Shown piece after piece: positions 1-15,395 of a stretch of 21,293 nt of DNA (position 1 is the stretch's first letter; each line of letters starts with the position of its first letter). The position numbers were made by a program, and so were the translations under genes. The notes under the pieces were generated by a model. It saw nothing but the letters and a program-made list of their open reading frames with translations, did no database searches and had not been told where the DNA came from. The stretch is from a virus: positions 1-21,293 of the IMG/VR virus record IMGVR_UViG_3300035698_006107. One strand, given 5' to 3'.

Positions 1-126
1 CGCACCACGTTGTGTGCGATGAACGTGCAAGCGGAAGCCCGCAACACGAAAATTGCGTCCCTGTTGGCCAACAACTCGGTAACTGTAACACCAACACCAG
101 TATTTGAGGAAAACGAAAAAAGCTGA
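1..126 (+). CDS. C-terminal end of an unidentified upstream protein (partial)
   Basis: Frame 1 is open from the window edge to a TGA at 124-126 and encodes the last 41 residues of a protein whose start lies outside the window. The tail ends in a Thr/Val/Pro-rich stretch (SVTVTPTPVFEENEKS) that looks like a flexible acidic C terminus. The stop overlaps the ATG of the next gene (TGATG), the coupling used throughout this window, which supports it being a real translated end. No family can be recognised from this fragment. It lies in the replication/nucleotide block, so a replication protein is a guess from position only. Confidence 0.6.
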   Translation, partial: RTTLCAMNVQAEARNTKIASLLANNSVTVTPTPVFEENEKS

Positions 127-569
127 TGTACGATCATAAAGCTTACATGCGGAAGTACAACCAACGGGAGTACGTTAGGGCCAACAAACGAGCAACCCGT
201 AAAGCGGGTGACCCCGTGCACCAAGCGTATATGAAAAAATACCGTCAACAGCCTGAACAACTGTGGCGCAATAGCACACGCCATAAAGAACGCGCTTATA
301 ACATCCGAGCGTGGTTACAAGCTATTCTCGGCGGTAAATGCGAACTTTGTGGTTGTACCAATCCATACATGCTAACGCTGGATCATCGTTTAAACGATGG
401 TGCCGCTCATCGCCGAAAAGTGGGTAGAAAAACAACCACTGTATACCGAGCGGTGCTGATCGAAGGTTGTCCTACAAAGTATTACCGTCTACTGTGTGGA
501 TCTTGCAATTTGGCTGTTGGCTGTTTCGGTGAAGAAGCCATTAAACAAAGCATAAAGGATAAACTATAA
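126..569 (+). CDS. HNH endonuclease-like protein (endonuclease VII-like zinc/HNH fold), upstream of purZ
   Basis: This 147-residue protein has a basic N-terminal half and a C-terminal ββα-metal (HNH) module. The module shows a CELCG zinc pair near residue 74, LTLDHRLNDG with the general-base His near residue 88, and LLCGSCNLAVG near residues 123-133, where the second Cys pair and the Asn of the HNH motif sit. This is the layout of phage recombination-endonuclease-VII-like and free-standing homing HNH enzymes, which nick or cut DNA and often spread into neighbouring loci. The start overlaps the upstream stop (TGATG) and the stop overlaps the purZ start (TAATG). A related HNH-like gene follows purZ. 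Whether it acts as a homing enzyme or in recombination cannot be told from sequence. Family assignment is confident, function less so. Confidence 0.75.
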   Translation: MYDHKAYMRKYNQREYVRANKRATRKAGDPVHQAYMKKYRQQPEQLWRNSTRHKERAYNIRAWLQAILGGKCELCGCTNPYMLTLDHRLNDGAAHRRKVGRKTTTVYRAVLIEGCPTKYYRLLCGSCNLAVGCFGEEAIKQSIKDKL

Positions 570-1642
570 TGACAACAATTAAAATACCCAAGGTCGATGT
601 TATAATAGGTGGTCAGCAAGGAAGTGAGGGGAAGGGAGTCATCGCTAACTACTTGTCTTCTGACTACGACGTACATGTTCGTGTTGGTGCCCCGAACGCT
701 GGTCACTCGTTTATCGGCCCAGACCGCGCCAACTGGGTTATGCAGACTGTGCCGTGTGGGTGGGCCAATCCACTCGCGATTTTAATCGTGGGACGTGGTG
801 GTCTTATCTGCCCCAAGCTGTTGCGTAAAGAAGTTGAAGCCATCGCCAAGGTTGATGGTACGATCTACAGCAGGCTGATGATAGACCCGTTGTGTGGCGT
901 GTTGGACCAGCAGTTTCAAGACATGGAAGGTGGTAACGATGGAGAAATGCACCATCGCATTGGCTCTACTGGTAAAGGTGTAGGCCCGGCGCGTGAAGCC
1001 CGTATCAGCCGCGATCCTGAACGGTTCCGGTTGTTCCGGGATTTAGCCGCCGAGGAACCTTGGTTCGCACAGTTCTCGATAGCCAACACTCCAGCCTTAA
1101 TACACAACATGCGAAAAGGTGGAGCGAAAGTGCTGTTAGAAGGCGCACAGGGTGTGGGCTTGTCTTTGATTCATGGCCCATGGCCATACTGCACTTCCAC
1201 TGACCCTGGTCCCGCGCAACTCGCTTCTGACGTTGGCATCCCAGTGCGGGATATCGGTCGTGTGATAGCCGTTTTTCGTACCTTCCCGATTCGCGTTGCA
1301 GGAAACAGCGGCCCACTTAAAAACGAACTGTCATGGGAACTCATGTCGGATCGTGTGGGGCACGATGTAACCGAAAAAACAACCGTCACCAAAAAAACAC
1401 GCCGGATAGGTGAGTGGGACGACGAACTGGCTGAACAGTGTCGCATCCTGCACGGGCCAACCGAAGTGGCGTTGACGTTTGTTGACTACCTCTCCCCGGA
1501 AGACGAAGGAGTGACGCGCTATGATGAGTTGTCCGTGGAAACCAAGGACTTCATCAAGCACGTGGAAGAAGTGACCGGGTGCCCGGTCCGTTTGGTTGGC
1601 ACTGGTGGACCGAAACTTAGAATCATAGAACGCACAGCATAA
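569..1642 (+). CDS. purZ: PurZ-type adenylosuccinate synthetase homologue (2-aminoadenine nucleotide biosynthesis)
   Basis: This 357-residue protein belongs to the adenylosuccinate synthetase family but is shorter than the roughly 430-residue bacterial PurA. The N-terminal nucleotide loop reads GGQQGSEGKG (residues 14-23), where PurA has GxxWGDEGKG. Ser19 therefore replaces the catalytic Asp. The PurA His is kept in NAGHSF (His46). Other family blocks are STGKGVGPAREAR (about residues 132-144) and EGAQGVGLSLIHGPWPY (about 192-208). Known biology: phage PurZ joins dGMP with aspartate to make a succinylated dGMP, which host PurB converts to dZMP, the 2-aminoadenine nucleotide. Loss of the PurA Asp is typical of phage PurZ. 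An AAGGA box lies 5' of the ATG. The start overlaps the upstream stop, and the gene sits between two HNH-like genes and just ahead of a primase-polymerase. Ordinary PurA activity is the alternative, but the substituted Asp argues against it. Confidence 0.85.
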   Translation: MTTIKIPKVDVIIGGQQGSEGKGVIANYLSSDYDVHVRVGAPNAGHSFIGPDRANWVMQTVPCGWANPLAILIVGRGGLICPKLLRKEVEAIAKVDGTIYSRLMIDPLCGVLDQQFQDMEGGNDGEMHHRIGSTGKGVGPAREARISRDPERFRLFRDLAAEEPWFAQFSIANTPALIHNMRKGGAKVLLEGAQGVGLSLIHGPWPYCTSTDPGPAQLASDVGIPVRDIGRVIAVFRTFPIRVAGNSGPLKNELSWELMSDRVGHDVTEKTTVTKKTRRIGEWDDELAEQCRILHGPTEVALTFVDYLSPEDEGVTRYDELSVETKDFIKHVEEVTGCPVRLVGTGGPKLRIIERTA

Positions 1643-1653
1643 ACGTTGGTAGC

Positions 1654-2148
1654 ATGAAAACCTGTACGAAAACCTGCACAAAATGCGGGGTGTCAAAATC
1701 ATCGAACCAGTTCCACCGAAGGGGAACCACAGCGCGTACAGCTATTTGTGCCAGTTGTGATAGACAGCGCACTACTGCGTACAAGATAAACAACGCCGAT
1801 CGCTTACAGAAACGAGATAGTGACTATCAGAAAAAACAACGACTTAATGTCAAACGACTGGTACTACAACGACTTGGTGGTCGTTGTATAACACCGGGCT
1901 GTGGTTGTTGTGAATTACATTGGTTGACTATCTCGCATGAAAACAATGATGGTAAGAGTCACAGAACAACATTAAACGGTAGTCAAGCTGTATACCGGTG
2001 GGTGTTAAAAGCCACCGACTTGCAACTACAAAAGGCGGGTATTTCCGTGCGGTGTATCCGGTGTAATTTCTTATTGGCATGGCAACGTGAAGCCGACATT
2101 ATAGAAGCGATTAAACGTGAACACCAAAGAATCCGGGGTGATTTGTGA
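1654..2148 (+). CDS. HNH endonuclease-like protein with N-terminal zinc finger, downstream of purZ
   Basis: This 164-residue protein starts with a zinc-finger pair (CTKCGVSKSSNQF, then CASCDRQ near residue 33), often seen at the N terminus of phage HNH proteins. It then has a basic helical linker and a degenerate HNH module. LGGRC-ITPGCGCC lies near residues 74-86, LTISHENNDGKSHR near 91-104, and VRCIRCNFLLA near 138-148. It aligns in layout with the HNH-like protein before purZ (LGGxC, LTxxHxxNDGxxHR, VYRxVL, CxxCN), so the two are paralogous. The residue before the general-base His is Ser here, whereas the upstream copy has Asp, so metal binding may be altered. The stop overlaps the GTG start of the next gene (GTGA). 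Active nuclease versus DNA-binding remnant is unresolved. Confidence 0.65.
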   Translation: MKTCTKTCTKCGVSKSSNQFHRRGTTARTAICASCDRQRTTAYKINNADRLQKRDSDYQKKQRLNVKRLVLQRLGGRCITPGCGCCELHWLTISHENNDGKSHRTTLNGSQAVYRWVLKATDLQLQKAGISVRCIRCNFLLAWQREADIIEAIKREHQRIRGDL

Positions 2149-4259
2149 AGTTAAGTTACCCCAAATTCCGATATGTTGATTTCGCTGTAGGCGGCGCAAC
2201 GCGTCGTAACAACATAGTGGGGTGTGATGAACTGTTTATGTCCAAGGATGCCGAAAACTGCTTTACTGGGATGTTCCGGTTCAAAGAAGAGTATAAACAC
2301 CACGTGGAAGAAACAGGCAGTGTTCGTGGTGCTGACCAATTTGAATGTTATAGTGATTTTCTGTGGTTTGACATCGACGCGTCCACTTTACAGGATGCAA
2401 CAGCAGACATGCAGACGCTTCTGCGTGGTGTTGAATCGATGGGTGTACTTGATCAAACAGTAGTGTTTTTTTCCGGGTCCAAGGGTTACCACGTTGGTAT
2501 CAATGCAAGTGCGTTCGGCTTTGAACCGTCAAACGCGCTACCGGAGCAAATGCGCCACGTGTGTACGCACATGGCCGCGGTGTTTGGCATCAACATCGAC
2601 ACTAAAATCTACAACCACAACCGTCTATGGCGCATCGTTAACACTGTACACGGGAAAACCAGCTTGCGCAAAACCGCGCTCAACACGAAAGAAACGATCA
2701 ACGCAACAGTAGATGCGATTAACGCGGTGGTAGTGGCCAACGTTGGCAACGAGCCGCCGCGCTATGTAGCGTGTGATTATGGTGCCCCTGTGGACTCTTT
2801 GGTCCAGATGCGCACGAGGTCTGCTGTTGGTGTAGCTAAAAAAGTCGACGGGTGGGCCGCTCCGCCGCTGTCGAAAAAACAGACAAAGCTGATAAAAGGT
2901 GGCGTAGACTTCCTGCTAACACAAGGTGTGGGGCGCGGTGAACGTGATAACGAAGCGTTACTTAGAGCTTCTGAGTGTCACAAGTGCGGTGTCACACAAG
3001 ACGAGTGTATGGAAAAGCTACTTCAGTGGAACATACTAAACAGTCCCCCACTGGAGGAGTTGGACATTGGGCGTGTTGTCACTTCGGCTTACACCGGAGA
3101 AGGCTATGACTTCGGCACTAACTGCGATTCACTGCGCACCGCACGCGAAGAGAGTGGCGCGGTAATAAAAGCGTCGAAAGAAATAGACGTAGAAGCACTA
3201 CTTAACGGTGACGCGCCGGAAGAGGACGGCGAGTGTTATGTAAGACGACCATACACGCTAACCGAGTTGTTGGCTGGTGGTAACAAACTGGAAATGCCAG
3301 AAATCGTTGGTGATTACTTCTCATGGCGCAAACGCATAACGCTGTTGGTTGGCCGTGAAAAGCTGAGCGGCAAGTCGACGATTTGCACCTTTGAAGCTAT
3401 CGCCGCATTGCGCAAGGGTTACCGCGTGTTATGGATCTCCCCTGATGAACCACAGGACGACATCATCTACCGCTTGGCTAAGGCTGGTGTGGCTGAGTTC
3501 TCCGAGAACTGCGCTATCGTTGGAGACATGAACGTACCAACGTCATGGCTAGAACTTGGCCAGTTCATCGTTGGCTTTAAACCAGACCTTATCATCCTTG
3601 ACTCGATCCACTCAATCTTCCCCATGTTAAATGATGGTAAAGTCCCGGATAGTTCCGAAAGTGCGGAGTGGCAGAAACTGGTGTCCAAGTTGCGACCGCT
3701 TGCGATAGCGTTAGACGCCGCCGTCGTGTGGATTCACCATGCTAACAAGTCAACCGGGCTATCCACCGGGTCCATTGGTATTGCCGCCGCTGTTGATGCT
3801 GTTGTAACAATGACCCCACAACGAAAGGAAAATCGGCGCGTGTTGTCCTTCTTGGGACGACGTGTGAACTCCACATCCAATTGCGCGCTTGACTACCTTG
3901 GCGAAGAACAGGGCTACCAGCTTGTAGAAGAGTGGAACCAGACTGATGAAAATAAAAACGATAAACAATCCAAAAACGAGGAAACACAGACGTGGTTCAC
4001 AGAGGTGTTTATCCCCACTTGTAAGGGTAAGATCTTCCTACGCACTGAAGCTGTGCAGGCTTACCGGGACCACTTCCACGAAAGCCCCGGCAAAGCGTTT
4101 AAAAACTGCCTGATTAAGTTGCGTAGCTTGAATATTATCGGCAAGGGGCACATAGCCGCTGGCACCGCTGGCCAGAAAGGTTCCAGTTTGGAGTACGACA
4201 TTTTAGACCCCGAACCCACCACCTCCGCATCCGACTTGACTGGAGAAAACGATGACTAA
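2145..4259 (+). CDS. Bifunctional primase-polymerase (AEP type) fused to RecA-like helicase
   Basis: This is a 704-residue replication protein. The N-terminal third is an archaeo-eukaryotic primase (PrimPol) domain. FLWFDIDAS gives the catalytic Asp76/Asp78 pair, SGSKGYHVGI (110-119) is the nucleotide-binding SxKGxH motif, and NRLWRIVNTVHGKT (159-172) matches the third conserved block. A linker with a helical C-rich segment follows. The C-terminal half is a RepA/AAA_25-like RecA fold, with a P-loop around GREKLSGKST (403-412), Walker B LIILDS (Asp486) and WIHHANKST (529-537). It would make primers, possibly extend them, and unwind DNA at the phage fork. The GTG start at 2145 is coupled to the previous stop and preceded by a GGGGTGA box. 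The P-loop has one residue more than GxxxxGKS/T. Established parallel: the Z-genome cyanophage S-2L also uses a PrimPol rather than a family-A polymerase. Confidence 0.85.
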   Translation: MKLSYPKFRYVDFAVGGATRRNNIVGCDELFMSKDAENCFTGMFRFKEEYKHHVEETGSVRGADQFECYSDFLWFDIDASTLQDATADMQTLLRGVESMGVLDQTVVFFSGSKGYHVGINASAFGFEPSNALPEQMRHVCTHMAAVFGINIDTKIYNHNRLWRIVNTVHGKTSLRKTALNTKETINATVDAINAVVVANVGNEPPRYVACDYGAPVDSLVQMRTRSAVGVAKKVDGWAAPPLSKKQTKLIKGGVDFLLTQGVGRGERDNEALLRASECHKCGVTQDECMEKLLQWNILNSPPLEELDIGRVVTSAYTGEGYDFGTNCDSLRTAREESGAVIKASKEIDVEALLNGDAPEEDGECYVRRPYTLTELLAGGNKLEMPEIVGDYFSWRKRITLLVGREKLSGKSTICTFEAIAALRKGYRVLWISPDEPQDDIIYRLAKAGVAEFSENCAIVGDMNVPTSWLELGQFIVGFKPDLIILDSIHSIFPMLNDGKVPDSSESAEWQKLVSKLRPLAIALDAAVVWIHHANKSTGLSTGSIGIAAAVDAVVTMTPQRKENRRVLSFLGRRVNSTSNCALDYLGEEQGYQLVEEWNQTDENKNDKQSKNEETQTWFTEVFIPTCKGKIFLRTEAVQAYRDHFHESPGKAFKNCLIKLRSLNIIGKGHIAAGTAGQKGSSLEYDILDPEPTTSASDLTGENDD

Positions 4260-4962
4260 AAAAACAGCAGTGGCAAAGGTGCCAACACCCAAGTGGTCCA
4301 AGCTCATGCGACAGTATATCGTTAACCAGCTGGCGCGTTGGGCTTCGTATAAAGCGATCTGGGTGGACGTTACCAGTGAGCAGTTTACTGTAGACACCAC
4401 TATCCCACACCTTGACCCGGAAATCTTCACCTATAACATGTTCCGCATGCGGTGTTCCCGCATTGCCAAACACACAATAGCGGTAGCGCATGAGTTGTGG
4501 CAACGCGAAATAGGTGCCGTGCGTTGGGCCGAAGAAAAAGCCCGTGTTAGAGGTCTGTCGGAGCTTATTGATAAGGTGAACAAAGAAATCGACGAAGGTA
4601 ATTTCGACGTTAAGACTACCGGAACCATGGCCGCACTAATAGCCCAACTGCGCGGTTTGTACGAACAGGTACGCAAAGAGGTGTCGGCAGACGCTGACCG
4701 CGCGGCACTCTCTGCAAGTGGTACCCGTGTGTTGTTGACTAACCCCAAAAACGTGGAGATCGATGTTGATTACGTGTCCGAGTTGCTGATGGTCTACCGT
4801 GAAGAAATAGGCGGCCTGCACAACCTTGACCTTAAATCGCTGAACGTGGACGAGTTGGAAAAACTGCGCGCGGCGTGCACCGCGGCTATCTTCGCCAAGA
4901 TCGAAGCAATCGAAGAAACCACAGCCGAAGAAATCAAGAAAGAAGAAACCAACGATGAGTGA
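4252..4962 (+). CDS. Helical protein resembling DUF2280; possible small terminase subunit
   Basis: This 236-residue, mostly helical protein has an ATG that overlaps the end of the primase-helicase by 8 bases, with a GGAG box upstream. Its first two-thirds recalls DUF2280 phage proteins. There is an N-terminal helix-turn-helix-like stretch (QYIVNQLARWASYKAIWVDVTSEQF spans residues 16-40), a YN near residue 63, an ELW helix, and an RGLYEQVRKEV segment (about 134-144) that resembles the EQxAKE(V/I) ending of that family. DUF2280 proteins have been proposed as small terminase subunits that recognise packaging sites. The C-terminal third is very acidic and Glu/Lys-rich and probably disordered. It lies about 8 kb from the large terminase, which weakens the terminase idea; a replication accessory role is equally possible. 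Confidence 0.45.
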   Translation: MTKKTAVAKVPTPKWSKLMRQYIVNQLARWASYKAIWVDVTSEQFTVDTTIPHLDPEIFTYNMFRMRCSRIAKHTIAVAHELWQREIGAVRWAEEKARVRGLSELIDKVNKEIDEGNFDVKTTGTMAALIAQLRGLYEQVRKEVSADADRAALSASGTRVLLTNPKNVEIDVDYVSELLMVYREEIGGLHNLDLKSLNVDELEKLRAACTAAIFAKIEAIEETTAEEIKKEETNDE

Positions 4963-6114: not shown

Positions 6115-6356
6115 TGGCTGTTAACGTACCCACCATCACCGATGCTAAGGTGATAGCAAAGCGTACCGGAGCCGCTGGTGTTATCATCATCGCATTTGGG
6201 CCGAAAGCGTACCCCTTGAAGACATGTGGCTCCAGCTATGGTAGCACCAAAAAGCTGTGTGTACACTTTGGTAAAGCGATGAAAAAGATAATGGAAGACT
6301 ATTGGAACTGGAAACCCAAACCACCAATTGACGTAGGAGACGTTTATGACAGTTGA
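6114..6356 (+). CDS. Hypothetical protein (80 aa)
   Basis: This 80-residue protein is coupled at both ends: its ATG shares a base with the upstream stop, and its last 11 bases overlap the sigma-factor gene. The N-terminal half is Ala/Val/Ile-rich (TGAAGVIIIAFG near residues 18-29) and the C-terminal part is basic and aromatic (KAMKKIMEDYWNWKPKPP). No motif is recognised. Its position directly before the sigma factor may make it a co-expressed partner, which is inference from order only. Confidence 0.5.
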   Translation: MAVNVPTITDAKVIAKRTGAAGVIIIAFGPKAYPLKTCGSSYGSTKKLCVHFGKAMKKIMEDYWNWKPKPPIDVGDVYDS

Positions 6357-6975
6357 ACAACTCCACACGGAACACGGGAAGTACATCTTGACTTGTCTCA
6401 AGCTGTACGGCGTACCAGCGCAGGAGTGCCAAGACGTCCGACAGGATCTCTACCTCAGGCTGTTAGAGGTGGACAAGGTTATCCACGACGACCACGTCAA
6501 GGGCTTCTGCTCCAAGATCGCACGGGACATGGCCTACGACTGGTTACGCAAACAGAGCCGCACACCGTTAATGGAAGCCGTCATTACCATCGACGACGAA
6601 GGTTTTGAGGGTATACACCCGGTTCTTACTGCTCAGACTATGGCACGCTGGGAGTCTATCGTCAGCAACGCCAACGTGGAGCGCATCGCTCAGGCGTTAC
6701 AATTGGCTTTGATCTACGAAGTTGACCCCGGCATCACAGCGCACGAAGTGATAGCAGACATCCTATACGGGTTGAACATGACGCAGATCGGAACTAAACA
6801 CGGGTTTTCCAAAGCCACAGTGTCCCGGTGGATGAAAGAGTGGTACGCATGGATCAACGCAAAACTCCCCCCACGTGTAACCATTACGCCGATCCTCTGC
6901 TCGTACTGCGGTATTGAAAAAGCACTGGGACACGCCGTGGGTTGTCCGTTTTTAACCTTCATCAAGGAAGACTAA
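6346..6975 (+). CDS. ECF-like RNA polymerase sigma factor with C-terminal zinc knuckle
   Basis: This 209-residue protein carries a recognisable sigma-70 region 2 in residues about 7-72. ECQDVRQDLYLRLLE is followed by GFCSKIARDMAYDWLRKQSR, the helix pair that binds the core enzyme and the -10 element. Residues about 142-168 form a helix-turn-helix resembling region 4 (MTQIGTKHGFSKATVSRWMKEW), expected to bind a -35 element. A tail with Cys185, Cys188, His196 and Cys200 (C-X2-C-X7-H-X3-C) is not part of standard ECF sigmas. An AGGAGA box precedes the ATG. It could redirect host polymerase to phage promoters; the hairpin-rich region downstream is a plausible regulated target, but that link is inference. 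A sigma-like DNA-binding regulator is the alternative. Confidence 0.7.
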   Translation: MTVEQLHTEHGKYILTCLKLYGVPAQECQDVRQDLYLRLLEVDKVIHDDHVKGFCSKIARDMAYDWLRKQSRTPLMEAVITIDDEGFEGIHPVLTAQTMARWESIVSNANVERIAQALQLALIYEVDPGITAHEVIADILYGLNMTQIGTKHGFSKATVSRWMKEWYAWINAKLPPRVTITPILCSYCGIEKALGHAVGCPFLTFIKED

Positions 6976-7806: not shown

Positions 7807-7982
7807 TTACCTTCCTAAAAAAGTGCGCCGCGTGTGGTGTTGTCAAGTCAAGTGGCCTGATCAAAAACGGACGCTGTAAAAATGGGTGCACATCGAAGAA
7901 GATAGCCAAGTTGCTAACCTGTCCGCGCTGTAATCGCTCGTACAAAGAGTGCTACAAAAGCACCTGCACCATGACACCCTAA
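7803..7982 (+). CDS. Small Cys-rich zinc-ribbon protein (59 aa)
   Basis: The ATG at 7803 overlaps the previous stop (ATGA) and the frame ends at TAA 7980-7982. The 59-residue product has nine cysteines: CAACG near residue 8, CKNGC near 25, CPRC near 40, and CYKSTC near 50. This suggests one or two treble-clef or ribbon zinc sites. The remainder is strongly basic (many Lys), which would suit nucleic-acid binding. No named family is recognised. It lies in a run of Cys-rich genes after the sigma factor. Confidence 0.6.
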   Translation: MITFLKKCAACGVVKSSGLIKNGRCKNGCTSKKIAKLLTCPRCNRSYKECYKSTCTMTP

Positions 7983-7991
7983 GGAGACAAC

Positions 7992-8276
7992 GTGAGACGA
8001 GAACTGAGACCCTGCTGTTGTGGCAACACCCAAGAGCAGGGTCACAGCTTAGACTGTTCCTTTTACGGTCTGGGTTTAAGAGATATCTGGTGTCAGTACA
8101 AGCGGGGAGCCAAGCTTAAATGTGATCGGTGCGGTAGGGACGGGTGTACTTACCGCACTAATGGTTTCGTCGCGTGGGTGTCCAAAGCACCAAGCTGTCG
8201 TCCTGTGGGCTTCCGGGAAAGGCTCAAGGCACTTTGGGAGCGGCTCTGGGTGATCATAGCTGAGGTGGTCAACTGA
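7992..8276 (+). CDS. Cys-rich hypothetical protein with C2HC-like knuckle (94 aa)
   Basis: The GTG at 7992 follows a strong AAGGAGACAA box (7981-7990). The 94-residue product has CCCGNTQEQGHSLDC near residues 7-21, a variant of the knuckle in the two preceding Cys-rich products (Cys, then X7-His-X3-Cys). A second pair, CDRCGRDGC, lies near residue 41. The C-terminal third is amphipathic and hydrophobic (RLKALWERLWVIIAEVVN) and may pack against a membrane or a partner. It is the last gene before the 1.3 kb non-coding region. Function is unknown. Confidence 0.6.
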   Translation: MRRELRPCCCGNTQEQGHSLDCSFYGLGLRDIWCQYKRGAKLKCDRCGRDGCTYRTNGFVAWVSKAPSCRPVGFRERLKALWERLWVIIAEVVN

Positions 8277-8360
8277 CTTTAGGACTGCCACGCTGGCATA
8301 CGGGGAAGACAGTTAAGGCGTGCGGGCCACCCCGGATAGCGTGCGTACCGTCAGTACCTC

Positions 8361-8473
8361 TATACAAGGTACGTACGGTACTGACGGTACTGGCGGTCAG
8401 AAGGCCATAACGGAGGCGTGTTTTAATGTACTTTGAACCGCCAGTACCGTCAGTACCGTCAGTACCTTGTATA
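8361..8473. repeat. Large inverted repeat (36-bp arms) built on GTACCGTCA iterons
   Basis: Arms 8361-8396 and 8438-8473 are reverse complements at 34 of 36 positions. The outer 12 bp (TATACAAGGTAC) and inner 22 bp are perfect, with a 2-base mismatch between them, around a 41-base loop. The arms are made of a repeated 9-mer, CAGTACCGT, tandem at 8442-8459. The 14-mer GTACCGTCAGTACC occurs at 8345-8358, 8444-8457 and 8453-8466 on +, and inverted at 8377-8390, so alternative hairpins (for example 8345-8358 with 8377-8390) are possible. Iterons plus dyad symmetry next to an AT-rich TATATATAG run (8470-8478) is the look of an origin or repressor/initiator binding array. Confidence 0.85.
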
Positions 8474-8540
8474 TATAGAATATACAGGAAGACGGGGTAC
8501 GAAAAGGTAGGGTTAACGGAGGGCGTTCACTGTTGAGTAG

Positions 8541-8578
8541 TATGCAACGGCTTGCATATATTGGGAGCAAAAAGCTCC
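8541..8578. repeat. Two adjacent small hairpins
   Basis: TATGCAA (8541-8547) and TTGCATA (8552-8558) form a perfect 7-bp stem with a CGGC loop. Six bases later GGAGC (8564-8568) and GCTCC (8574-8578) form a 5-bp stem with an AAAAA loop. Neither is followed by a T-run, so they are not intrinsic terminators. They belong to the hairpin field described for the whole non-coding region. Confidence 0.6.
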
Positions 8579-8616
8579 AGAGTGTCTATTTGATATATTG
8601 GCTTCCCCCTATACCA

Positions 8617-8659
8617 AAGCAAACCACGTGCCAATTTCGAACAGCAAATCCCGTGCCAA
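8617..8659 (+). repeat. Two half-copies of the GCAAA-CGTGCCAA stem-loop arm
   Basis: AAGCAAACCACGTGCCAA (8617-8634) and AGCAAATCCCGTGCCAA (8643-8659) are direct repeats of the right arm of the stem-loops at 8950-8990 and 9390-9429. A good left arm is lacking; only a weak ATTGGC at about 8598-8603 could pair with the first. They may be decayed copies or single protein-binding half sites. Confidence 0.65.
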
Positions 8660-8853
8660 CTCGAAACTGTGTATTTAGGGGTACACAGCAAAGACTTTGT
8701 ATCTACACAGTCTACACTGTGCGTGGAAGTTACAAGGAAGCCACGTCGTTGGCCTTCCTTGCTCCGCGTACTATACTCATATCCACGAGATATCTGAGGC
8801 TTACCGTCGTAGCCCCGGACCCCACCCGATGGACACTTCGAGCCATGCCCAAT

Positions 8854-8871
8854 CCAGCGTCGTAACGCTGG
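8854..8871. repeat. Perfect 7-bp hairpin with CGTA loop
   Basis: CCAGCGT (8854-8860) pairs with ACGCTGG (8865-8871) around the 4-base loop CGTA. It sits seven bases upstream of the left terminal repeat of the 142-bp element that follows and has no T-run. Confidence 0.6.
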
Positions 8872-8908
8872 CGGACGATTATAACGCCACCGCGCATATC
8901 TTACCGAG

Positions 8909-8944
8909 TTGGCACGCTGTTTGCTATAGCAATTCTCGTGCCAA
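8909..8944. repeat. Stem-loop family copy 1
   Basis: TTGGCACG (8909-8916) pairs with CGTGCCAA (8937-8944). Inside, after an unpaired 4-base step on each side, TTGCTA and TAGCAA (8921-8932) form a second perfect palindrome. The same two-tier design occurs in the next stem-loop and in one about 450 bases downstream. Confidence 0.8.
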
Positions 8945-8949
8945 GTTCA

Positions 8950-8990
8950 AATTGGCATGTCGTTTGCTAAAAGCAAATCCCGTGCCAATT
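8950..8990. repeat. Stem-loop family copy 2
   Basis: AATTGGCATG (8950-8959) pairs with CGTGCCAATT (8981-8990), with one G-T pair. The apical stem is TTTGCT/AGCAAA (8963-8968 with 8972-8977), separated from the basal stem by TCG and TCC. It lies five bases after copy 1. Confidence 0.8.
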
Positions 8991-9241
8991 GAGTGTCAAC
9001 TGCGCGGTGGCGTTATAATAGTGCAAATAGTCTGGTATTTGCATTCCGAAATACACGTACAACCGAGTTGGAGACTTTCTGGGAAGCTTCTCCTTGGCCT
9101 TGCTTTATCATGGTGGGGTGTTCAGGGCTATCTGTCTATTTGAGGACCGGGACGGGCTTCCGGGGAACTCCGGGAGGGTTCGACAGGTCCGGGAAGGCCC
9201 GCTCGTACTCGGACTTCTCAGAACCGCATATGCAGGGGAAC

Positions 9242-9263
9242 ATCCCTAATCTGTGGGATTTTT
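9242..9263 (+). terminator. Possible weak intrinsic terminator
   Basis: ATCCC (9242-9246) and GGGAT (9255-9259) form a short stem with an 8-base loop, followed directly by TTTTT (9259-9263). The stem is only 5 bp, so termination would be weak. It could end a transcript entering from the hairpin region before the downstream gene cluster. Confidence 0.35.
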
Positions 9264-9389
9264 GCCTATACCTTTGCACCTTGCGACACTGCTCAGGTGT
9301 GCATTTAGGCGTCCCGGAGGGTCCACGCGGGATTATGGGAGGCTCCCCATACTATCCGGATATCCTCTGAGAGGGTCTTTGCGGCCTTC

Positions 9390-9429
9390 TTGGCACGTCG
9401 TTTGCTCTTAAGAGCAACTCTCGTGCCAA
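9390..9429. repeat. Stem-loop family copy 3
   Basis: TTGGCACG (9390-9397) pairs with CGTGCCAA (9422-9429). The apical stem is a perfect 16-bp palindrome, TTGCTCTTAAGAGCAA (9402-9417), so the top is longer than in the two upstream copies while remaining self-complementary. The basal 8-bp stem is identical to copy 1, and the unpaired step is again four bases on each side (TCGT and CTCT). Confidence 0.8.
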
Positions 9430-9604
9430 AAGAGAGGTGTTTGTGAAACGCGGAGCCGTCCCGTACGGATAAACATGTAGAAACAGGACGGCCAACTTCG
9501 TAAGGCCCACGCCAACCAAAGTCAATATCGACCTCTTGCGAGCGATGGAGCAGAAGCAACTTTCTTGTTTACTACACACCGCACACCAACCCAAGGATGA
9601 TAGC

Positions 9605-9847
9605 ATGGAACCAACGAAAAAGTTTTGGAGGTCCGTCGGAAGACGTGGACCGATCAACACACAAAGACGACCAGATGTTAGTATCCGCGAAATTGCCTAC
9701 CAGCACCCGTTTTCGGTTTATCACTCGCTACTCGCGGGCACCAACTGGATCGCGGAATTAGACATATCCCCCACAGCAAAGAAGCTCACACGGTTACAAG
9801 GTCGCGACTTCCGCTTGGCCGCGCAAGGAGTGCTTGATGACGCATAA
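9605..9847 (+). CDS. Small basic hypothetical protein (80 aa)
   Basis: The ATG at 9605 has an AAGGA box at 9593-9597 seven bases upstream and is preferred over in-frame upstream starts, which lack one. The product begins MEPTKKFWRSVGRRG and is Arg-rich, with a helix-forming stretch at VSIREIAYQHPFSVYHSLLAG. No domain is recognised. It is the first gene after the non-coding region, and its end overlaps the next start (9837). Confidence 0.55.
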   Translation: MEPTKKFWRSVGRRGPINTQRRPDVSIREIAYQHPFSVYHSLLAGTNWIAELDISPTAKKLTRLQGRDFRLAAQGVLDDA

Positions 9848-9989
9848 AGAAGAACGATTACTTAAAAAGCTATGTGAAAAGCTGGATCGCCAGTATGAAC
9901 AGGGTGTCCAAGTGGGTACCAAGCTTGGTGGCGTTTACAACATGCTGGTTCGCATTGCCGACCGCATGGCACTTAAAATGGAAGATTAA
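9837..9989 (+). CDS. Small helical hypothetical protein (50 aa)
   Basis: The ATG at 9837 is preceded by AAGGAG at 9825-9830 and overlaps the upstream gene by 11 bases; the TAA is at 9987-9989. The 50-residue product is a charged, probably alpha-helical peptide (MTHKEERLLKKLCEKLDRQY, then a GVxVGxKLGG turn and another helix). No motif is recognised. It is two bases from the next gene. Confidence 0.55.
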   Translation: MTHKEERLLKKLCEKLDRQYEQGVQVGTKLGGVYNMLVRIADRMALKMED

Positions 9990-9991
9990 CC

Positions 9992-10207
9992 ATGGCAATA
10001 AAGAAAAGTATACTGAAGGGTGTCATCTGGGAAGTGATCGGCGTTGCGTCGATGTACACATGGACAGGCGATTGGAGATTTTCCCTCGCGTGGGTTACCT
10101 ATCGTGTTGTCACCTTCCCGTTTTATGAGCGCGCTTTTAAATACGTGCGCAGACACTGGTTCATTAAAAAAGCTGATCAGCGCACCAATAACCCCGGATC
10201 ACCATAA
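9992..10207 (+). CDS. DUF2061-like small membrane protein
   Basis: This 71-residue protein matches the pattern of the DUF2061 family: SILKGVIWEVIGVASMYTWTGDWRFSLAWV recalls S-x-x-K-x-(I/V)-x-(W)-R/E-x-I-x-x-x-x-T-x-x-x-(T)-G, and YRVVTFPFYERAFKYV recalls the (E/x)-x-x-x-K/x-x-x-x-Y-x-x-H/E-R ending. It would be a short inner-membrane protein with two weak hydrophobic segments and a basic C terminus. DUF2061 has no established function that I know of. It starts two bases after the previous stop. Confidence 0.6.
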   Translation: MAIKKSILKGVIWEVIGVASMYTWTGDWRFSLAWVTYRVVTFPFYERAFKYVRRHWFIKKADQRTNNPGSP

Positions 10208-10214
10208 ACACATG

Positions 10215-10282
10215 CAGGGTGTAGCTTAATTGGTAAACCGCCGTTTGCAAGCGGAAATCCGAGTTCGACCCTCGGCACCTGG
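10215..10282 (+). tRNA. tRNA-like sequence with irregular D and anticodon arms (anticodon unresolved)
   Basis: The T arm is perfect: CCGAG, loop TTCGACC, CTCGG (about 10259-10275). The acceptor strand CAGGGTG (10215-10221) pairs with CACCTGG (10276-10282) at six of seven positions, one of them G-T. TA-GCTT-AATTGGTA follows at the D-arm position with the invariant GG. The span is only 68 bases, the D stem closes poorly, and the anticodon stem is CCGC/GCGG around GTTTGCA plus a C-A mismatch. This allows TTG (Gln) by standard position, or TGC/GCA by resemblance. No CCA is encoded. It may be a decayed or unusual phage tRNA; a covariance-model scan would decide. Confidence 0.5.
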
Positions 10283-10319
10283 CATAAACATGGGTGGTTG
10301 TTGCGTAACAAGCTGGATG

Positions 10320-10349
10320 TTAACCGCATCACATAGCATACGTTATAAT
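10320..10349 (+). promoter_or_regulatory. Candidate sigma-70-type promoter for groES-like gene
   Basis: A consensus TATAAT lies at 10344-10349, about 40 bases before the groES-like start, with a weak TTAACC at 10320-10325 as a -35 element (18-base spacer). GGGTGGT (10292-10298) and ACCACCC (10351-10357) form an inverted repeat bracketing the promoter, a possible operator or hairpin. It lies between the tRNA-like sequence and the next gene, where a new transcript start makes sense. Confidence 0.5.
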
Positions 10350-10388
10350 GACCACCCGTACAAATCACACTAAACAAAGGAACACCGC

Positions 10389-10685
10389 ATGAACTTCATA
10401 CCTTTGTCAGATCGCATCTTAATTCTACCCACTCCGGAGCCGGAACCCAAAGAGGGTGAGATCATAAGAGTTCGATCCGACGTTGAAAAATCACCAACTG
10501 ATGGCACTGTTGTTGCCGCTGGACCGGGACACTATGAAAACGGCGGCTACAAACCGATGGAAGTAACCGTTGGTGACCACGTGCAGTGGGGCAAGTTCGC
10601 AGGTTCGTACGTAGAAATCGACGGGTGCAAGCTCGTTTTAATGCGGGAATCTGACATCCAAGGAGTTATTCCAGATGTACATTGA
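10389..10685 (+). CDS. GroES-like co-chaperonin
   Basis: This 98-residue protein is the size of a 10-kDa chaperonin. It starts MNFIPLSDRILI (family PLxDRVLV) and contains DGTVVAAGPG (about residues 38-47), then KPMEVTVGDHVQWGKFAGSYVEIDG and the highly characteristic LMRESDIQGVI near the C terminus. The mobile-loop region (about 18-34, EGEIIRVRSDVEKSPT) is divergent but keeps a hydrophobic IIRV that could engage host GroEL. Established: some phages encode GroES substitutes (T4 gp31) to fold their capsid protein with host GroEL. A candidate promoter and an AAAGGAA box lie upstream. It overlaps the next gene by 11 bases. Confidence 0.85.
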   Translation: MNFIPLSDRILILPTPEPEPKEGEIIRVRSDVEKSPTDGTVVAAGPGHYENGGYKPMEVTVGDHVQWGKFAGSYVEIDGCKLVLMRESDIQGVIPDVH

Positions 10686-11019
10686 CATACTTAACGGGTT
10701 GTTTTGGACCGCGCTATGCCTTAACATTGGCCTGTGGTACTGCAAATCACACGAAAAAGAAATGAGCTGTTCACACGAAAAACTTGGCCGATTCGATGCC
10801 CGTGTTGGCATTGAGGAACAGGGCACCAGAGATTTTGATCTTACTATTTCGTGGGAACCACGCTGGTACTTCACTTTCCAGCTGTCACTTTGGACCGTAT
10901 ACTGTGGTTGTAGCTGGTCACGGGACATTGTATCGTACGCTGACTGTAAATATGATGGTGTTGAGTGTTACGCTTGTGGTTGCACAAAACAGTGCGAAGC
11001 GAAAGAGGAAGTTGAATGA
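10675..11019 (+). CDS. Hypothetical protein with N-terminal hydrophobic segment and Cys-rich tail
   Basis: This 114-residue protein starts inside the groES end, after a CAAGGAG box. An N-terminal hydrophobic stretch (IDILNGLFWTALCLNIGLWY) could be a membrane anchor. A central beta-rich part (FDLTISWEPRWYFTFQLSLWTVYCG) and a C-terminal cysteine cluster (CKYDGVECYACGCTKQC) follow. No family is recognised. The stop overlaps the next start. Confidence 0.55.
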   Translation: MYIDILNGLFWTALCLNIGLWYCKSHEKEMSCSHEKLGRFDARVGIEEQGTRDFDLTISWEPRWYFTFQLSLWTVYCGCSWSRDIVSYADCKYDGVECYACGCTKQCEAKEEVE

Positions 11020-11435
11020 TGTACACAACTCACACAATAGACGCAAGTCGCACACCACTGCTGGTGGGCCAGATTTACGATGACGCGGTATTGGCTCGGA
11101 CACCAAGTGGTGAAACACTGCTCATTCCGCGCTTTGATGTTGAAACGCCCGTGTTATCCTGCAGTAAGTGTAGTAAGCCTGCCCTGTTGAAACATGACAA
11201 GAACACTGATAAAGATCGCCCTGAGTGCCCAGACCACGCTCGTCACATGTACGAAGCACTGTTTACCGGGTCACACGACATCAAACGCTACAATCGTAAA
11301 CAACGACGCGGCATGTTCGATCAGGCCAAACGCTGGCTTGGTGTATGGCGCGATCAGGTAGAAACACGGCTGAAGAACAACGCGGAACATACTAAAAAAG
11401 AGCTAACTGCACATGAAGCCAAAACCCGTGGATAA
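11016..11435 (+). CDS. Hypothetical protein with central zinc-ribbon-like motif
   Basis: In this 139-residue protein, residues about 49-75 hold CSKCSKPALLKHD followed by ECPDHARH, a C-X2-C...C-X2-H arrangement likely to bind zinc. The N-terminal part (LLVGQIYDDAVLARTPSGETLLIPRFD) is beta-rich. The C-terminal third is basic and helical (RYNRKQRRGMFDQAKRWLGVWRDQVETRL). The start overlaps the upstream stop and the end overlaps the next gene by 23 bases. Function is unknown. Confidence 0.55.
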   Translation: MMYTTHTIDASRTPLLVGQIYDDAVLARTPSGETLLIPRFDVETPVLSCSKCSKPALLKHDKNTDKDRPECPDHARHMYEALFTGSHDIKRYNRKQRRGMFDQAKRWLGVWRDQVETRLKNNAEHTKKELTAHEAKTRG

Positions 11436-11837: not shown

Positions 11838-12089
11838 ATGCAGATTTATGATATCATTGAAACCGTACGACACAACGCCGCTGGAGGTGTTCACACCTAC
11901 TCACAATGTGAATGCGGACGCCAATCCCGGCGTGGTGGTTGGCCATGTAACTTGTGTTTAGCTGACAAGCTGATTAAAGCTGGTGTGCCAAAAGGGTACG
12001 TCGAACTATGGTTAGTCTCACTCGATGGTGTTAACAAATGTGAGAGTCTTTTCGTTGACATTATTGGTGAAGATAACACGGAGTTATAA
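11838..12089 (+). CDS. Small Cys-rich hypothetical protein (83 aa)
   Basis: The ATG at 11838 lies just after the previous stop. The frame is open further upstream, but that part overlaps the zinc-ribbon gene. The product has CECGRQSRRGGWPCNLC near residues 24-40, a compact C-X-C...C-X2-C zinc site, followed by helical and beta segments (LADKLIKAGVPKGYVELWLVS). No family is recognised. The ribosome-binding site is weak, so coupling to the upstream gene is likely. Confidence 0.5.
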   Translation: MQIYDIIETVRHNAAGGVHTYSQCECGRQSRRGGWPCNLCLADKLIKAGVPKGYVELWLVSLDGVNKCESLFVDIIGEDNTEL

Positions 12090-12090
12090 T

Positions 12091-12651
12091 ATGGCAGTAC
12101 AACGTACCAAACATAAAGAAGAGCCAGCGCAGTATTACAACAACATATACAGCAGGCGCGGCGGCTATAACACCAAGCGTTTCGAGCAGGTGTACAACAC
12201 GGTATTCAACTGGCTCAACTTCTCGGACGACATTCTGGAGTGTGGTTGTGGTACGGGAGTGCTGGCCAAGCGTCTTATTAACAATGGTTACTCCTACTGT
12301 GGTTTCGACTTCAGTAAACAAGCGATCGCACGATGCCATTCAAGCGTAATGAACCACGTGTACATCGGGGATGCTTACAACCCGCGATTTTACCGAAGCA
12401 ACTTTGATGTGTTGGTAGCGGTTGAGGTGTTTGAACATCTGGACGACCTGAGAGTACTTAAAATGGTGCCCTGTGGTACGCGAGTTATCTTCACTGTTCC
12501 CAACTTTAGCTCACGATCGCATCTGAGAACGTACCCAGACGGGGACAGCATCAGGGAATACTACGAAGGAGTGTTGTACGTCACCAGTGCCATGCAGATT
12601 TCAACATCAACATCAAAAATCATCACGGTATGTGATGCTATTAAAATTTAG
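12091..12651 (+). CDS. Class I SAM-dependent methyltransferase
   Basis: The ATG at 12091 sits two bases after the previous stop, with a CGGAG box upstream; the longer upstream frame is not needed. The 186-residue product shows motif I ILECGCGTG (48-56), motif II GFDFS (Asp73), GDAY (94-97) and VAVEVFEHLDD (109-119), the UbiG/Methyltransf_23-like pattern. There is no DNA-methylase DPPY/NPPY catalytic motif, so a small molecule, protein or cell-wall/sugar target is more likely than an adenine. It is followed by an intrinsic terminator, so it ends the accessory operon. Confidence 0.75.
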   Translation: MAVQRTKHKEEPAQYYNNIYSRRGGYNTKRFEQVYNTVFNWLNFSDDILECGCGTGVLAKRLINNGYSYCGFDFSKQAIARCHSSVMNHVYIGDAYNPRFYRSNFDVLVAVEVFEHLDDLRVLKMVPCGTRVIFTVPNFSSRSHLRTYPDGDSIREYYEGVLYVTSAMQISTSTSKIITVCDAIKI

Positions 12652-12915: not shown

Positions 12916-14643
12916 ATGAGTAAAATCGGAATGTCACTAGCGCGCGACTCCAAACAGATGATCGGTGCCGGGCTTAATGTCATGGCGAAAAAATACCCAC
13001 GTCTGTTTATGGCCATGATGCACCATCGCACCACCAAGGGCAAGCGCATGACATTTCGGGACAAACCATGGTTAACCGCGATTTACAAAGACAACTCGCA
13101 CAACATGGTTGTAATCAAGTGTTCGCAGGTTCATATGACGGAACACGCGCTGTGCGCCATGTTCACCTATGCTGATCAGGGCAAGCGCGGTATGTACGTG
13201 TTACCGAGTTCAGAACATAGGAAGACTTTCGTGTCTGACCGCATTAACCAGATGAAGGACTACAGCGAGTTATACGATAACGCGATAAAAAGCAGACCAA
13301 ACGAGAGCGACAGCAACGTCTACAAGTCGATTTTCAACAGTGGTTGGAAGTTCGTGGGATCCAACGTTAAGAAAGACTTCTTTGAGTTCCCATGCGAAGT
13401 GTTATTCTTCGACGAGTATGACGAACTTGATCAGGGTAACTTGTGGTACGCATACGATCGTGTTGCTAACGCGCCTAATCCGATTGTCTGGAAATTTGGC
13501 AACCCCACACGCGAAAACCACGGCATACACAGAGAGTTCCTCGAATCAGACCAAAAAGAGTGGCACGTTGATTGTGAGCACTGTGGTAAAGAACAAGTAC
13601 TCGATTGGTATGATCATTTTATTACTCCGCATCACGGAACGTGGCGTTTACGCAACCCCGCCGGACGTCCGGTTTGTCAAGAGTGCGGCAAGGACTTCGA
13701 TCGTCTCGGACCGGGACGTTGGGTAGCTATGAATCCGGGACCGGGCAAAGCGAGTGGATACCGCATTTCGCGTTTATTCACTAATAAAAAACAAAAGCCA
13801 AACGACATCATTAAGATGTTTAAGCGGTTCATTTTATCACAAAACGACCAGACCGCATTACAGAACTTCCACAATAACCTGTTGGGTATGACCTACGAGA
13901 ACGTAGACTTTAAAGTCACTAAAGAGGTGCTAGCGCGCTCGGTGTATGAACACTCCGCGAACTTCGAGTTTGACCCGTCCTTGTTCCGCACGGTAATGGG
14001 AGTTGATCAGGGCAAGCTGTTTACCTGTGTGATCTCCATGGTGTGGGATGGTGAGTTAATTGATATCCACTACACCAATGTAAAGCGTTGGGCCGACGTG
14101 GAGAAGTTGGAGAGGGACTTTAACGTCGTTTCTACCGTGATTGATGCGCAGGGTGGTGGTTATGCGGAAACGCGTGATTATGTTAACGGCGGTAGCAACC
14201 GCTGGATGTGTTATTACAGACCAAAAGATCAAATAACGGGGAACAAAGAGTACAAGCTAAACTACACCGACCATATCGTGGCCACCAACCGCACGGAATG
14301 TCTCGACTTAATAACGAAGATGCTGTTGGAGAAAAAGGCTCATGTGCGCGCTGATTACGCTACTGCCGAGGGTGGAGAGTTCCAGCTACAGATGATAGAA
14401 TCCGCGCGTATCACAGATCACAACGGTCGTCCCGTATGGACCAAAGGCAAAGACCATTTCTTCCATGCCAGCGCGTACCGCTACCTCGCGTTTCGTGTGA
14501 GTGGTATGTCACACAGTATCGCTAAGCCTGCCGATTGGCATGCGACAGACCAGAAAACTAAGATACCCGAACCCAAAGCGCGGACCATTGGTGCTCCAAT
14601 GACCATCGATCCGAAGAAACAGACAGGCAACTGGTTCTCATGA
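12916..14643 (+). CDS. Terminase large subunit (GpA-like)
   Basis: This 575-residue packaging motor/nuclease resembles the GpA (lambda-type) terminase family. The ATPase half has a degenerate P-loop region, VVIKCSQVHMTEHAL (about 57-71), and Walker B VLFFDEYDELDQG (Asp166, Glu167). A zinc-ribbon-like insertion uses Cys220/Cys223 and Cys254/Cys257. The nuclease half begins at MGVDQGK (Asp364) and includes STVIDAQGG (about 411-419). It would cut concatemers and drive DNA into the prohead. The length is close to the family norm. The ATG has only a weak GTAGGGA box. The end overlaps the methyltransferase start (ATGA), and the portal gene follows next but one. Confidence 0.85.
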   Translation: MSKIGMSLARDSKQMIGAGLNVMAKKYPRLFMAMMHHRTTKGKRMTFRDKPWLTAIYKDNSHNMVVIKCSQVHMTEHALCAMFTYADQGKRGMYVLPSSEHRKTFVSDRINQMKDYSELYDNAIKSRPNESDSNVYKSIFNSGWKFVGSNVKKDFFEFPCEVLFFDEYDELDQGNLWYAYDRVANAPNPIVWKFGNPTRENHGIHREFLESDQKEWHVDCEHCGKEQVLDWYDHFITPHHGTWRLRNPAGRPVCQECGKDFDRLGPGRWVAMNPGPGKASGYRISRLFTNKKQKPNDIIKMFKRFILSQNDQTALQNFHNNLLGMTYENVDFKVTKEVLARSVYEHSANFEFDPSLFRTVMGVDQGKLFTCVISMVWDGELIDIHYTNVKRWADVEKLERDFNVVSTVIDAQGGGYAETRDYVNGGSNRWMCYYRPKDQITGNKEYKLNYTDHIVATNRTECLDLITKMLLEKKAHVRADYATAEGGEFQLQMIESARITDHNGRPVWTKGKDHFFHASAYRYLAFRVSGMSHSIAKPADWHATDQKTKIPEPKARTIGAPMTIDPKKQTGNWFS

Positions 14644-15395
14644 AAAACTTAACAATGGATACATGCGGTCATGCCCAGTGCAGTCCCTGCTACATGGCAG
14701 GTTATGAACGCGTTGATATTAACTTCGTAAGTAAGTATTTGGACCGCGTTGTAGACGCTGGCAAGTTGAACGGAGTGTTTATCGATGTTGGTGCCCATGT
14801 GGGTTTATGGTCCCTGCGAATGAGCGAATGGTACCAAATGCGATACAATGTTACGCCGTTAATCTACGCTCTGGAGTGTGAAACACACAACTTCATGCGG
14901 CTAAAAATAAACGCTGAACAGGCCGATACGGGTATAGTGCCAGCGCACGTCGCGGCGTGGCATCGCCAAGAGTTGTTACGTGTAAAGCGCAACGAAAATC
15001 CAAGCAGACACAAAGTGGTAAATCCGCTGAATCACCAACCCGACTCAGCGGACATTAATAACAGGATAATGCGCATACAGGGTGTGCCCCTTGATGACAT
15101 GGCCCACTCAGTGGAAAACAGGCAGGTGGACGTGATAAAAATAGACGTGGAAGGCGCGGAGTTGAACGTATTAAATGGCGCACGTGGTATTCTAACCGAA
15201 AACGATCAGCTGTTGGTTGTTGTTGAGTACTTAGTTGGTCACTTCGAAGAATACGGGTACACACCCAAACAAATTACGGCGTTTATGACAGCGCACGGCT
15301 ACAGGACAGCACGCCCCGTCGATAAAGAAGCAACAGAGAATATCCGCACGGGTGAAGTGAAGCGTGTAATGTTCCTGAAAGGAGAAGTCTCATAA
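14640..15395 (+). CDS. FkbM-family SAM methyltransferase inserted between terminase and portal
   Basis: This is a 251-residue protein. Motif I is GVFIDVGAHVGLWSL (45-59), the acidic ribose ligand is Glu79 (ALECE), and the family hallmark VDVIKIDVEGAELNVLNGA lies at 163-181, preceded by VPLDD. FkbM enzymes O-methylate small molecules, sugars or glycolipids. The N terminus has CGHAQCSPC (9-17), which might bind a metal. Both ends are coupled by overlaps, so it is translated with terminase and portal despite having no obvious packaging role. Modification of a virion or surface glycan is an inference. The family call is strong, the substrate unknown. Confidence 0.8.
   Translation: MKNLTMDTCGHAQCSPCYMAGYERVDINFVSKYLDRVVDAGKLNGVFIDVGAHVGLWSLRMSEWYQMRYNVTPLIYALECETHNFMRLKINAEQADTGIVPAHVAAWHRQELLRVKRNENPSRHKVVNPLNHQPDSADINNRIMRIQGVPLDDMAHSVENRQVDVIKIDVEGAELNVLNGARGILTENDQLLVVVEYLVGHFEEYGYTPKQITAFMTAHGYRTARPVDKEATENIRTGEVKRVMFLKGEVS

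What the first reader, a model, noticed from the sequence alone, without database searches (positions are those of the whole stretch)
569..1642. PurZ-type enzyme with Ser in place of the PurA catalytic Asp: candidate 2-aminoadenine (Z) genome
The nucleotide loop reads GGQQGSEGKG and His46 is kept, the pattern of phage PurZ rather than PurA. PurZ is the committing step to dZ in characterised Z-genome phages. Other Z-pathway members (DatZ, MazZ, DpoZ) are not in this window, so either they lie outside it or this is a reduced pathway, such as the PurZ-only variants reported in some phages.
Basis: partly seen in the sequence, partly recalled or inferred. Interest (0 to 1): 0.85.

Follow-up and report, generated by a model that had tools for sequence, protein, structure and literature searches.

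The report
Phage PurZ from a third lineage
This environmental phage carries the enzyme that starts making 2-aminoadenine (the unusual DNA letter Z that replaces A), it belongs to a branch of that enzyme family with no cultured member, and the partner genes that seem to be missing lie just beyond the left end of the fragment in its two closest relatives.

Summary
Window 569-1642 encodes an intact 357-aa PurZ-type enzyme: Ser19 replaces the PurA Asp13, His46 is kept, and further PurZ-specific residues are present (Thr271, Lys276, the PIRVAGNSGPL loop). It does not fall within PurA. It belongs to an uncultured viral clade, 11 sequences at first (100/99) and 24 with denser sampling (SH-aLRT 99), separate from published PurZ (S-2L, phiVC8) and PurZ0 (Wayne, Ghobes). 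The best match in 50,697 phage records is 34.8% identical.

The suggested 'PurZ-only / reduced pathway' is not supported. The window is a 21-kb fragment starting 568 bp before purZ. Two colinear relatives (72% and 60% identical PurZ) carry PolA, dATP/dGTP diphosphohydrolase (DUF5664), a nucleoside-deoxyribosyltransferase-family gene and PurZ in one block immediately upstream. A third relative, equally close in structural genes, lacks PurZ and that transferase.

Most likely this is a Z-genome phage of a third PurZ lineage, with a PolA unrelated to either known DpoZ group. The chemistry is unmeasured.

One caution: the Ser motif alone is not diagnostic. Many bacterial chromosomes encode a kinase-PurA fusion with the same Ser in an uncharacterised operon.

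The parts
569..1642 (+). purZ-type gene, 357 aa: predicted succino-2-amino-deoxyadenylate synthetase (dGMP + Asp, GTP as likely donor)
   Evidence: PF00709, phrog_1211, Ser19/His46/Thr271/Lys276/Asp306, third viral clade, AlphaFold pLDDT 91.7 matching 5k7x/6fko/7vf6
126..569 (+). Small Cys/His-rich protein (147 aa), HNH-like by eye, directly upstream of purZ and the last full gene before the fragment's left edge
   Evidence: for the ORF; no Pfam hit; it matches the same G016 protein as 1654-2148. BpsS140 and Wayne also have an annotated homing/HNH gene beside purZ
1654..2148 (+). Second Cys/His-rich HNH-like protein (164 aa) between purZ and the primase-helicase
   Evidence: assignment by eye only
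2145..4259 (+). Primase (PriS/AEP-like N-terminus) - RecA-type helicase, 704 aa, next gene of the replication block
   Evidence: PriCT_1, AAA_25, primase/DnaB-like PHROGs; 59% to G001, 44% to G016, and only residues 242-622 match the PurZ-less relative G017
4252..4962 (+). Conserved protein of unknown function following the primase in all three relatives (236 aa)
   Evidence: 62% G001, 41% G016, 46% G017
1..125 (.). Left end of the fragment. By synteny with G001 and G016, the genes beyond it are expected to be NDT-family gene, DUF5664 dATP/dGTP diphosphohydrolase and PolA
   Evidence: window is a linear 21,293-bp IMG/VR fragment; G001 35444-39055 (-) and G016 7940-11148 (-) hold these genes. 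Inferred for this phage

Best explanation
569-1642 encodes a PurZ-type enzyme that joins aspartate to dGMP to give N6-succino-2-amino-dAMP, probably with GTP as phosphate donor. Host PurB and kinases then make dZTP. The phage belongs to an uncultured family whose replication block is PolA - DUF5664 dATP/dGTP diphosphohydrolase - NDT-family enzyme - PurZ - primase/helicase. The diphosphohydrolase would lower dATP and supply dGMP, the NDT-family enzyme may destroy dAMP or salvage Z, and PolA would copy the genome with Z in place of A. Shown: PurZ identity, residues, predicted fold, clade, synteny of partners in sister phages, and co-occurrence of PurZ with the NDT gene in this family. Inferred: presence of the partners in this very phage, GTP use, Z preference or tolerance of the polymerase, and Z in the virion DNA.
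For: Residues: Ser19 (Asp in PurA), Thr271 (Gly), Lys276 (Arg303 of E. coli) and the loop PIRVAGNSGPL / TTVTKK, as in phage PurZ/PurZ0 (functional meaning of these positions in PMC8342488). Asp306 as in GTP-using PurA and in PurZ0, where S-2L has Gln and phiVC8 Asn. Tree: separate viral clade 100/99 and PurA clade 100/99; 24-member clade, SH-aLRT 99. Fold: pLDDT 91.7; best matches archaeal PurA 5k7x, phiVC8 PurZ 6fko, PurZ0 7vf6. Synteny: the window is colinear with G001, G016 and G017. G001 and G016 have PolA, DUF5664, NDT and PurZ in one block. Structural genes are about equally distant among the three, but PolA is 47% within the PurZ+ pair against 34/32% to PurZ-less G017, and NDT (65%) and PurZ (61%) occur only in the pair. 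21 of 23 clade loci have a DutZ/NDT/DUF5664 gene within the fetched flanks, against 1 of 15 phage tiles without PurZ and 4 of 80 bacterial loci. The dUTPase next to PurZ in clade member G002 has DutZ of PurZ0 Arthrobacter phages as its best hits among 737 phage records.
Against: No nucleoside analysis exists. The partner genes are off the edge of this fragment. The PolA of G001/G016 groups with neither DpoZ-1 nor DpoZ-2, so Z preference cannot be read by descent. The G001/G016 NDT-family protein lacks the PVD motif of characterised DmtZ and has no hit in the phage collection. The deep order of the Ser-type clades is unresolved: AU tests do not reject grouping this clade with PurZ, with PurZ0, or even as sister to PurA.
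Confidence: 0.8

Rival explanations
1. A reduced, PurZ-only pathway: the phage makes dZMP but has no dedicated polymerase or pool enzymes, so Z is only partly incorporated.
For: No partner genes in the 21 kb seen. S-2L manages without DpoZ using a PrimPol and dATP depletion (PMC8342488), and this window has a primase-helicase.
Against: Colinear relatives carry the partners exactly where the window ends; 21 of 23 clade loci have pool genes nearby.
Confidence: 0.08
2. A PurA-like or GMP-using auxiliary enzyme that boosts (2-amino)adenine ribonucleotide supply or signalling, not Z-DNA.
For: Closest solved structure by sequence and fold is archaeal PurA. Bacterial chromosomal Ser-type enzymes are mostly 35-41% identical, more than most cultured phage PurZ.
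Against: Arg303, which contacts the ribose O2' in PurA, is Lys here but Arg in most sampled bacterial fusions; PolA/dATP-hydrolase neighbourhood.
Confidence: 0.08
3. Decayed or repurposed PurZ in a phage with ordinary DNA, as relatives such as G017 do without it.
For: G017, same family, lacks PurZ and NDT at this locus.
Against: Intact ORF, catalytic residues kept, strong third-position bias of changes.
Confidence: 0.04

Closest known systems
PurZ0 of Gordonia/Arthrobacter phages (Ghobes, Wayne, Archimedes; PDB 7VF6) with DutZ, DmtZ, DUF5664, DpoZ-1
   Same: Ser for Asp, Thr271, Lys at the Arg303 position, Asp at the donor-base position, PIRVAGNSGPL-type loop; neighbourhood of PolA with DutZ/NDT/DUF5664 in the clade
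   Different: About 31-35% identity; separate clade; PolA not of the DpoZ-1 group; NDT of the nearest relatives without the DmtZ PVD motif; PurB near only 1 of 23 members
PurZ of phiVC8 and S-2L (PDB 6FM1, 7ODX) with DatZ, MazZ, DpoZ-2
   Same: Ser/Thr active-site changes, fold, short archaeal-type architecture
   Different: Asp306 instead of Asn/Gln; no DatZ-family gene near PurZ in the 23 clade loci scanned (DUF550/MazZ test uninformative); separate clade; PolA not DpoZ-2
Archaeal short PurA (Pyrococcus, PDB 5K7X)
   Same: Length, fold (TM 0.88), GTP-type Asp
   Different: Asp13 -> Ser, Gly298 -> Thr, Arg303 -> Lys, loop insertion; outside the PurA clade
Bacterial chromosomal P-loop kinase::Ser-PurA fusions and Nanoarchaeota stand-alone Ser enzymes
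   Same: GGQYGSEGKG; about 35-41% identity; Nanoarchaeota proteins sister to the first 11-member clade (96/91), though not in the denser tree
   Different: Fusions have an N-terminal kinase-like domain, sit in another operon, mostly keep Arg at the Arg303 position

Membership tests
PurZ/PurZ0 (2-amino-deoxyadenylosuccinate synthetase) | PurA-family fold and sequence | tested here: met
   PF00709 5e-52, phrog_1211 3e-68; AlphaFold/Foldseek
PurZ/PurZ0 (2-amino-deoxyadenylosuccinate synthetase) | Ser in place of catalytic Asp13, plus the other PurZ-type substrate residues (Thr273, non-Arg at Arg303, loop insertion) | tested here: met
PurZ/PurZ0 (2-amino-deoxyadenylosuccinate synthetase) | Score above the NCBIfam PurZ cut-off (NF038379, 300 bits) | tested here: not met
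   224 bits. The model may be tuned to the described subgroups, but the test is not passed
PurZ/PurZ0 (2-amino-deoxyadenylosuccinate synthetase) | Falls inside the published PurZ or PurZ0 clade | tested here: not met
   Own clade 100/99; PurZ 100/98 and PurZ0 100/100 without it; 24-member clade
PurZ/PurZ0 (2-amino-deoxyadenylosuccinate synthetase) | Uses dGMP + Asp with ATP or GTP | not testable with these tools
   Needs enzyme assay
Z-genome phage | Partner genes: PolA (DpoZ) and dATP/dGTP hydrolase(s) beside purZ | tested here: inconclusive
   Absent from the fragment; present in colinear sisters G001 and G016
Z-genome phage | PolA belongs to DpoZ-1 or DpoZ-2 | tested here: not met
   Tested on the sister phages, since the window holds no PolA: it forms its own group with PurZ-less G017
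Z-genome phage | 2-aminoadenine replaces adenine in virion DNA | not testable with these tools
   Needs LC-MS of virion DNA
PurA (adenylosuccinate synthetase) | Catalytic Asp13 and Arg303; clusters with PurA | tested here: not met
   Ser19, Lys276; PurA clade excludes it

The most novel reading that the evidence does not exclude
A third, independently assembled Z-genome system: a GTP-using PurZ lineage with no cultured member, paired with family-A polymerases of at least two origins unrelated to DpoZ-1/DpoZ-2 and, in the window's own family, with a new NDT-family enzyme. That would mean polymerase tolerance or selection of Z arose more than the two times proposed so far.
Probability: 0.5. Interest if true: 0.62.

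Novelty: new variant of a known kind. Interest (0 to 1): 0.5.

Why it matters
Two PurZ subgroups and two DpoZ groups are described, with a single origin proposed for PurZ. A third environmental PurZ lineage with unrelated polymerases would extend the Z alphabet to new phages. It also gives a natural pair (PurZ+ G001/G016 against PurZ- G017 in one phage family) for asking which polymerase and primase changes accompany Z-DNA. The Ser-type enzymes in bacterial chromosomes show that the hallmark residue is not phage-specific and should not be used alone to call Z-genomes.

Tried and rejected
PurA contamination or host PurA: rejected by residues and tree. Reduced pathway: rejected as unnecessary, fragment end plus synteny. 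DatZ (PF12917) and DUF550 (PF04447) searches across relatives: the only DatZ-like hit was in PurZ-less G017, and the DUF550 search rang nowhere, so it is uninformative. Searching relatives of the primase gave nothing in IMG/VR with single-sequence patterns. The G001 NDT has no match in cultured phages and only itself and G016 in IMG/VR, so it cannot be called DmtZ. AU tests on deep branching were all non-rejecting, so no sister-group claim is made. Literature searches for the bacterial Ser-PurA operon found nothing in the open library. PMC12884076 states donor preferences as ATP for PurZ0 and GTP for PurZ, but phiVC8 PurZ is crystallised with ATP and dGMP (6fko/6fm1) and its donor-base residue is Asn, so I read Asp306 as GTP-type; this is inference.

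Full report
Observation. The ORF at 569-1642 (+) is intact (357 aa, ATG) and belongs to the adenylosuccinate synthetase family (PF00709, E=5e-52; phrog_1211, E=3e-68). Neither the NCBIfam PurZ model nor the archaeal-type PurA model reaches its cut-off. The nucleotide loop is GGQQGSEGKG: Ser19 aligns with Ser23 of S-2L PurZ and Asp13 of E. coli PurA, and His46 aligns with the PurA catalytic His. Three more positions that PMC8342488 discusses as PurZ/PurA discriminators are PurZ-like: Thr271 (Gly in PurA), Lys276 (Arg303 in E. coli, Lys267 in phiVC8) and the loop PIRVAGNSGPL, longer than PurA's. At the donor-base position it has Asp306, like PurA and PurZ0, where S-2L has Gln and phiVC8 Asn. Codon-position differences from the sister gene (0.27/0.17/0.60) show purifying selection. 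AlphaFold gives pLDDT 91.7 and pTM 0.91; Foldseek ranks archaeal PurA 5k7x first, then phiVC8 PurZ and PurZ0.

Placement. Among 50,697 phage records the best match is 34.8% identical. IMG/VR holds much closer relatives, up to 72%. A 52-row maximum-likelihood tree gives three supported viral clades: this one (11 sequences, 100/99), published PurZ plus Bacillus phage BpsS140 (100/98), and PurZ0 (100/100); the PurA controls form their own clade (100/99). With 87 rows the window's clade has 24 members (SH-aLRT 99). Relations between the clades are not resolved by AU tests.

The missing partners. The window is a linear 21,293-bp IMG/VR fragment, and purZ starts 568 bp from its left end. Its genes are colinear with three longer contigs, G001 (59.9 kb), G016 (45.5 kb) and G017 (52.6 kb). 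In G001 and G016, upstream of purZ and in the same transcription direction, come PolA, a dATP/dGTP diphosphohydrolase (PF18909, DUF5664) and a Nuc_deoxyrib_tr-family protein (PF05014). The window's left edge falls just before this block, so the partners are not shown to be absent; they would lie off the edge. G017 has no PurZ and no PF05014 gene; it keeps PolA and DUF5664 and has a YfbR-like HD protein in that place. Structural genes are about equidistant among the three (terminase 60/56/56%, major capsid 61/63/59%), whereas PolA is 47% between the PurZ+ phages and 34/32% to G017, and the N-terminal primase half does not match G017. Polymerase and primase thus appear to have changed together with gain or loss of PurZ.

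Wider clade. In 23 non-redundant loci of the clade, PolA is nearby in 14, DutZ-like dUTPase in 16, NDT in 10 and DUF5664 in 7; 21 have at least one pool gene. In 15 phage tiles without PurZ the count is 1, and in 80 bacterial loci 4. The dUTPase beside PurZ in G002 has the DutZ of PurZ0 phages as its best hits. These are the enzymes that PMC12884076 characterised as the PurZ0-phage toolkit. The polymerases of the clade fall into at least two groups, neither of them DpoZ-1 or DpoZ-2. The NDT of G001/G016 has the Tyr and GTxxE motifs of the superfamily by eye, but not the PVD motif of DmtZ, and it has no match among cultured phages.

Mechanism. Most likely: dGTP and dATP are hydrolysed to monophosphates by DUF5664, dGMP + Asp (+ GTP) give dSMP by PurZ, host PurB and kinases give dZTP, and PolA incorporates Z. 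The enzyme identity is well supported. The rest follows from established Z-phage biochemistry and from gene neighbourhood in relatives, not from measurement.

Caution on the motif. A genome scan found at least 154 bacterial or archaeal loci with Ser-type relatives; the 80 kept are 32-41% identical. Most are ~535-560-aa fusions of a P-loop kinase-like domain to the PurA-like domain, in a conserved operon with an IrrE-peptidase/macro-domain protein and DUF7002. Most of those sampled keep Arg at the Arg303 position, so they may act on ribonucleotides. The Ser alone therefore does not prove a Z-genome.

Verdict. A real PurZ-family enzyme of a new viral lineage, in a fragment that cuts off its partners. 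Known kind of system, new variant; chemistry untested.

Noticed in passing
L046-L123 (e.g. L074 4-8 kb, L100 4.8-7.8 kb, L061 5.2-7.8 kb): Widespread bacterial (and some archaeal) chromosomal operon: IrrE-peptidase + macro-domain protein (or a second P-loop kinase or YfbR-like HD protein), then a P-loop kinase::Ser-PurA fusion (73 of 79 sampled are at least 500 aa), then DUF7002 whose N-terminus resembles ART/DarT by eye. Weak PADLOC hits (capP, DarG). No paper found; may be an uncharacterised nucleotide-based defence or toxin-antitoxin-like system.
   Followed up: partly
L044 5983-7017, L045 5992-7038: Stand-alone Ser-type PurZ-like genes in Nanoarchaeota MAGs, sister to the window's viral clade in the first tree (96/91) but not in the denser one.
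   Followed up: partly
G017 (L032 15806-17220): PurZ-less member of the same phage family with DUF5664 plus a YfbR/DatZ-like HD protein in place of NDT-PurZ, and a different primase N-terminus; a thymidylate-synthase-like ORF lies next to PolA by eye.
   Followed up: partly
window 126-569 and 1654-2148: Two related Cys/His-rich HNH-like genes flank purZ; distant PurZ phages (Wayne, BpsS140) also have annotated HNH/homing genes beside purZ. Possible homing into the locus.
   Followed up: no
window 6346-6975, 10389-10685, 12025-12651, 14640-15395, 17181-19283: Phage-encoded ECF-like sigma factor, GroES co-chaperonin, a small SAM methyltransferase, an FkbM-type methyltransferase between terminase and portal, and a capsid protein fused to its maturation protease.
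   Followed up: no
window 10214-10284: tRNA-like gene with undetermined anticodon reported by ARAGORN.
   Followed up: no
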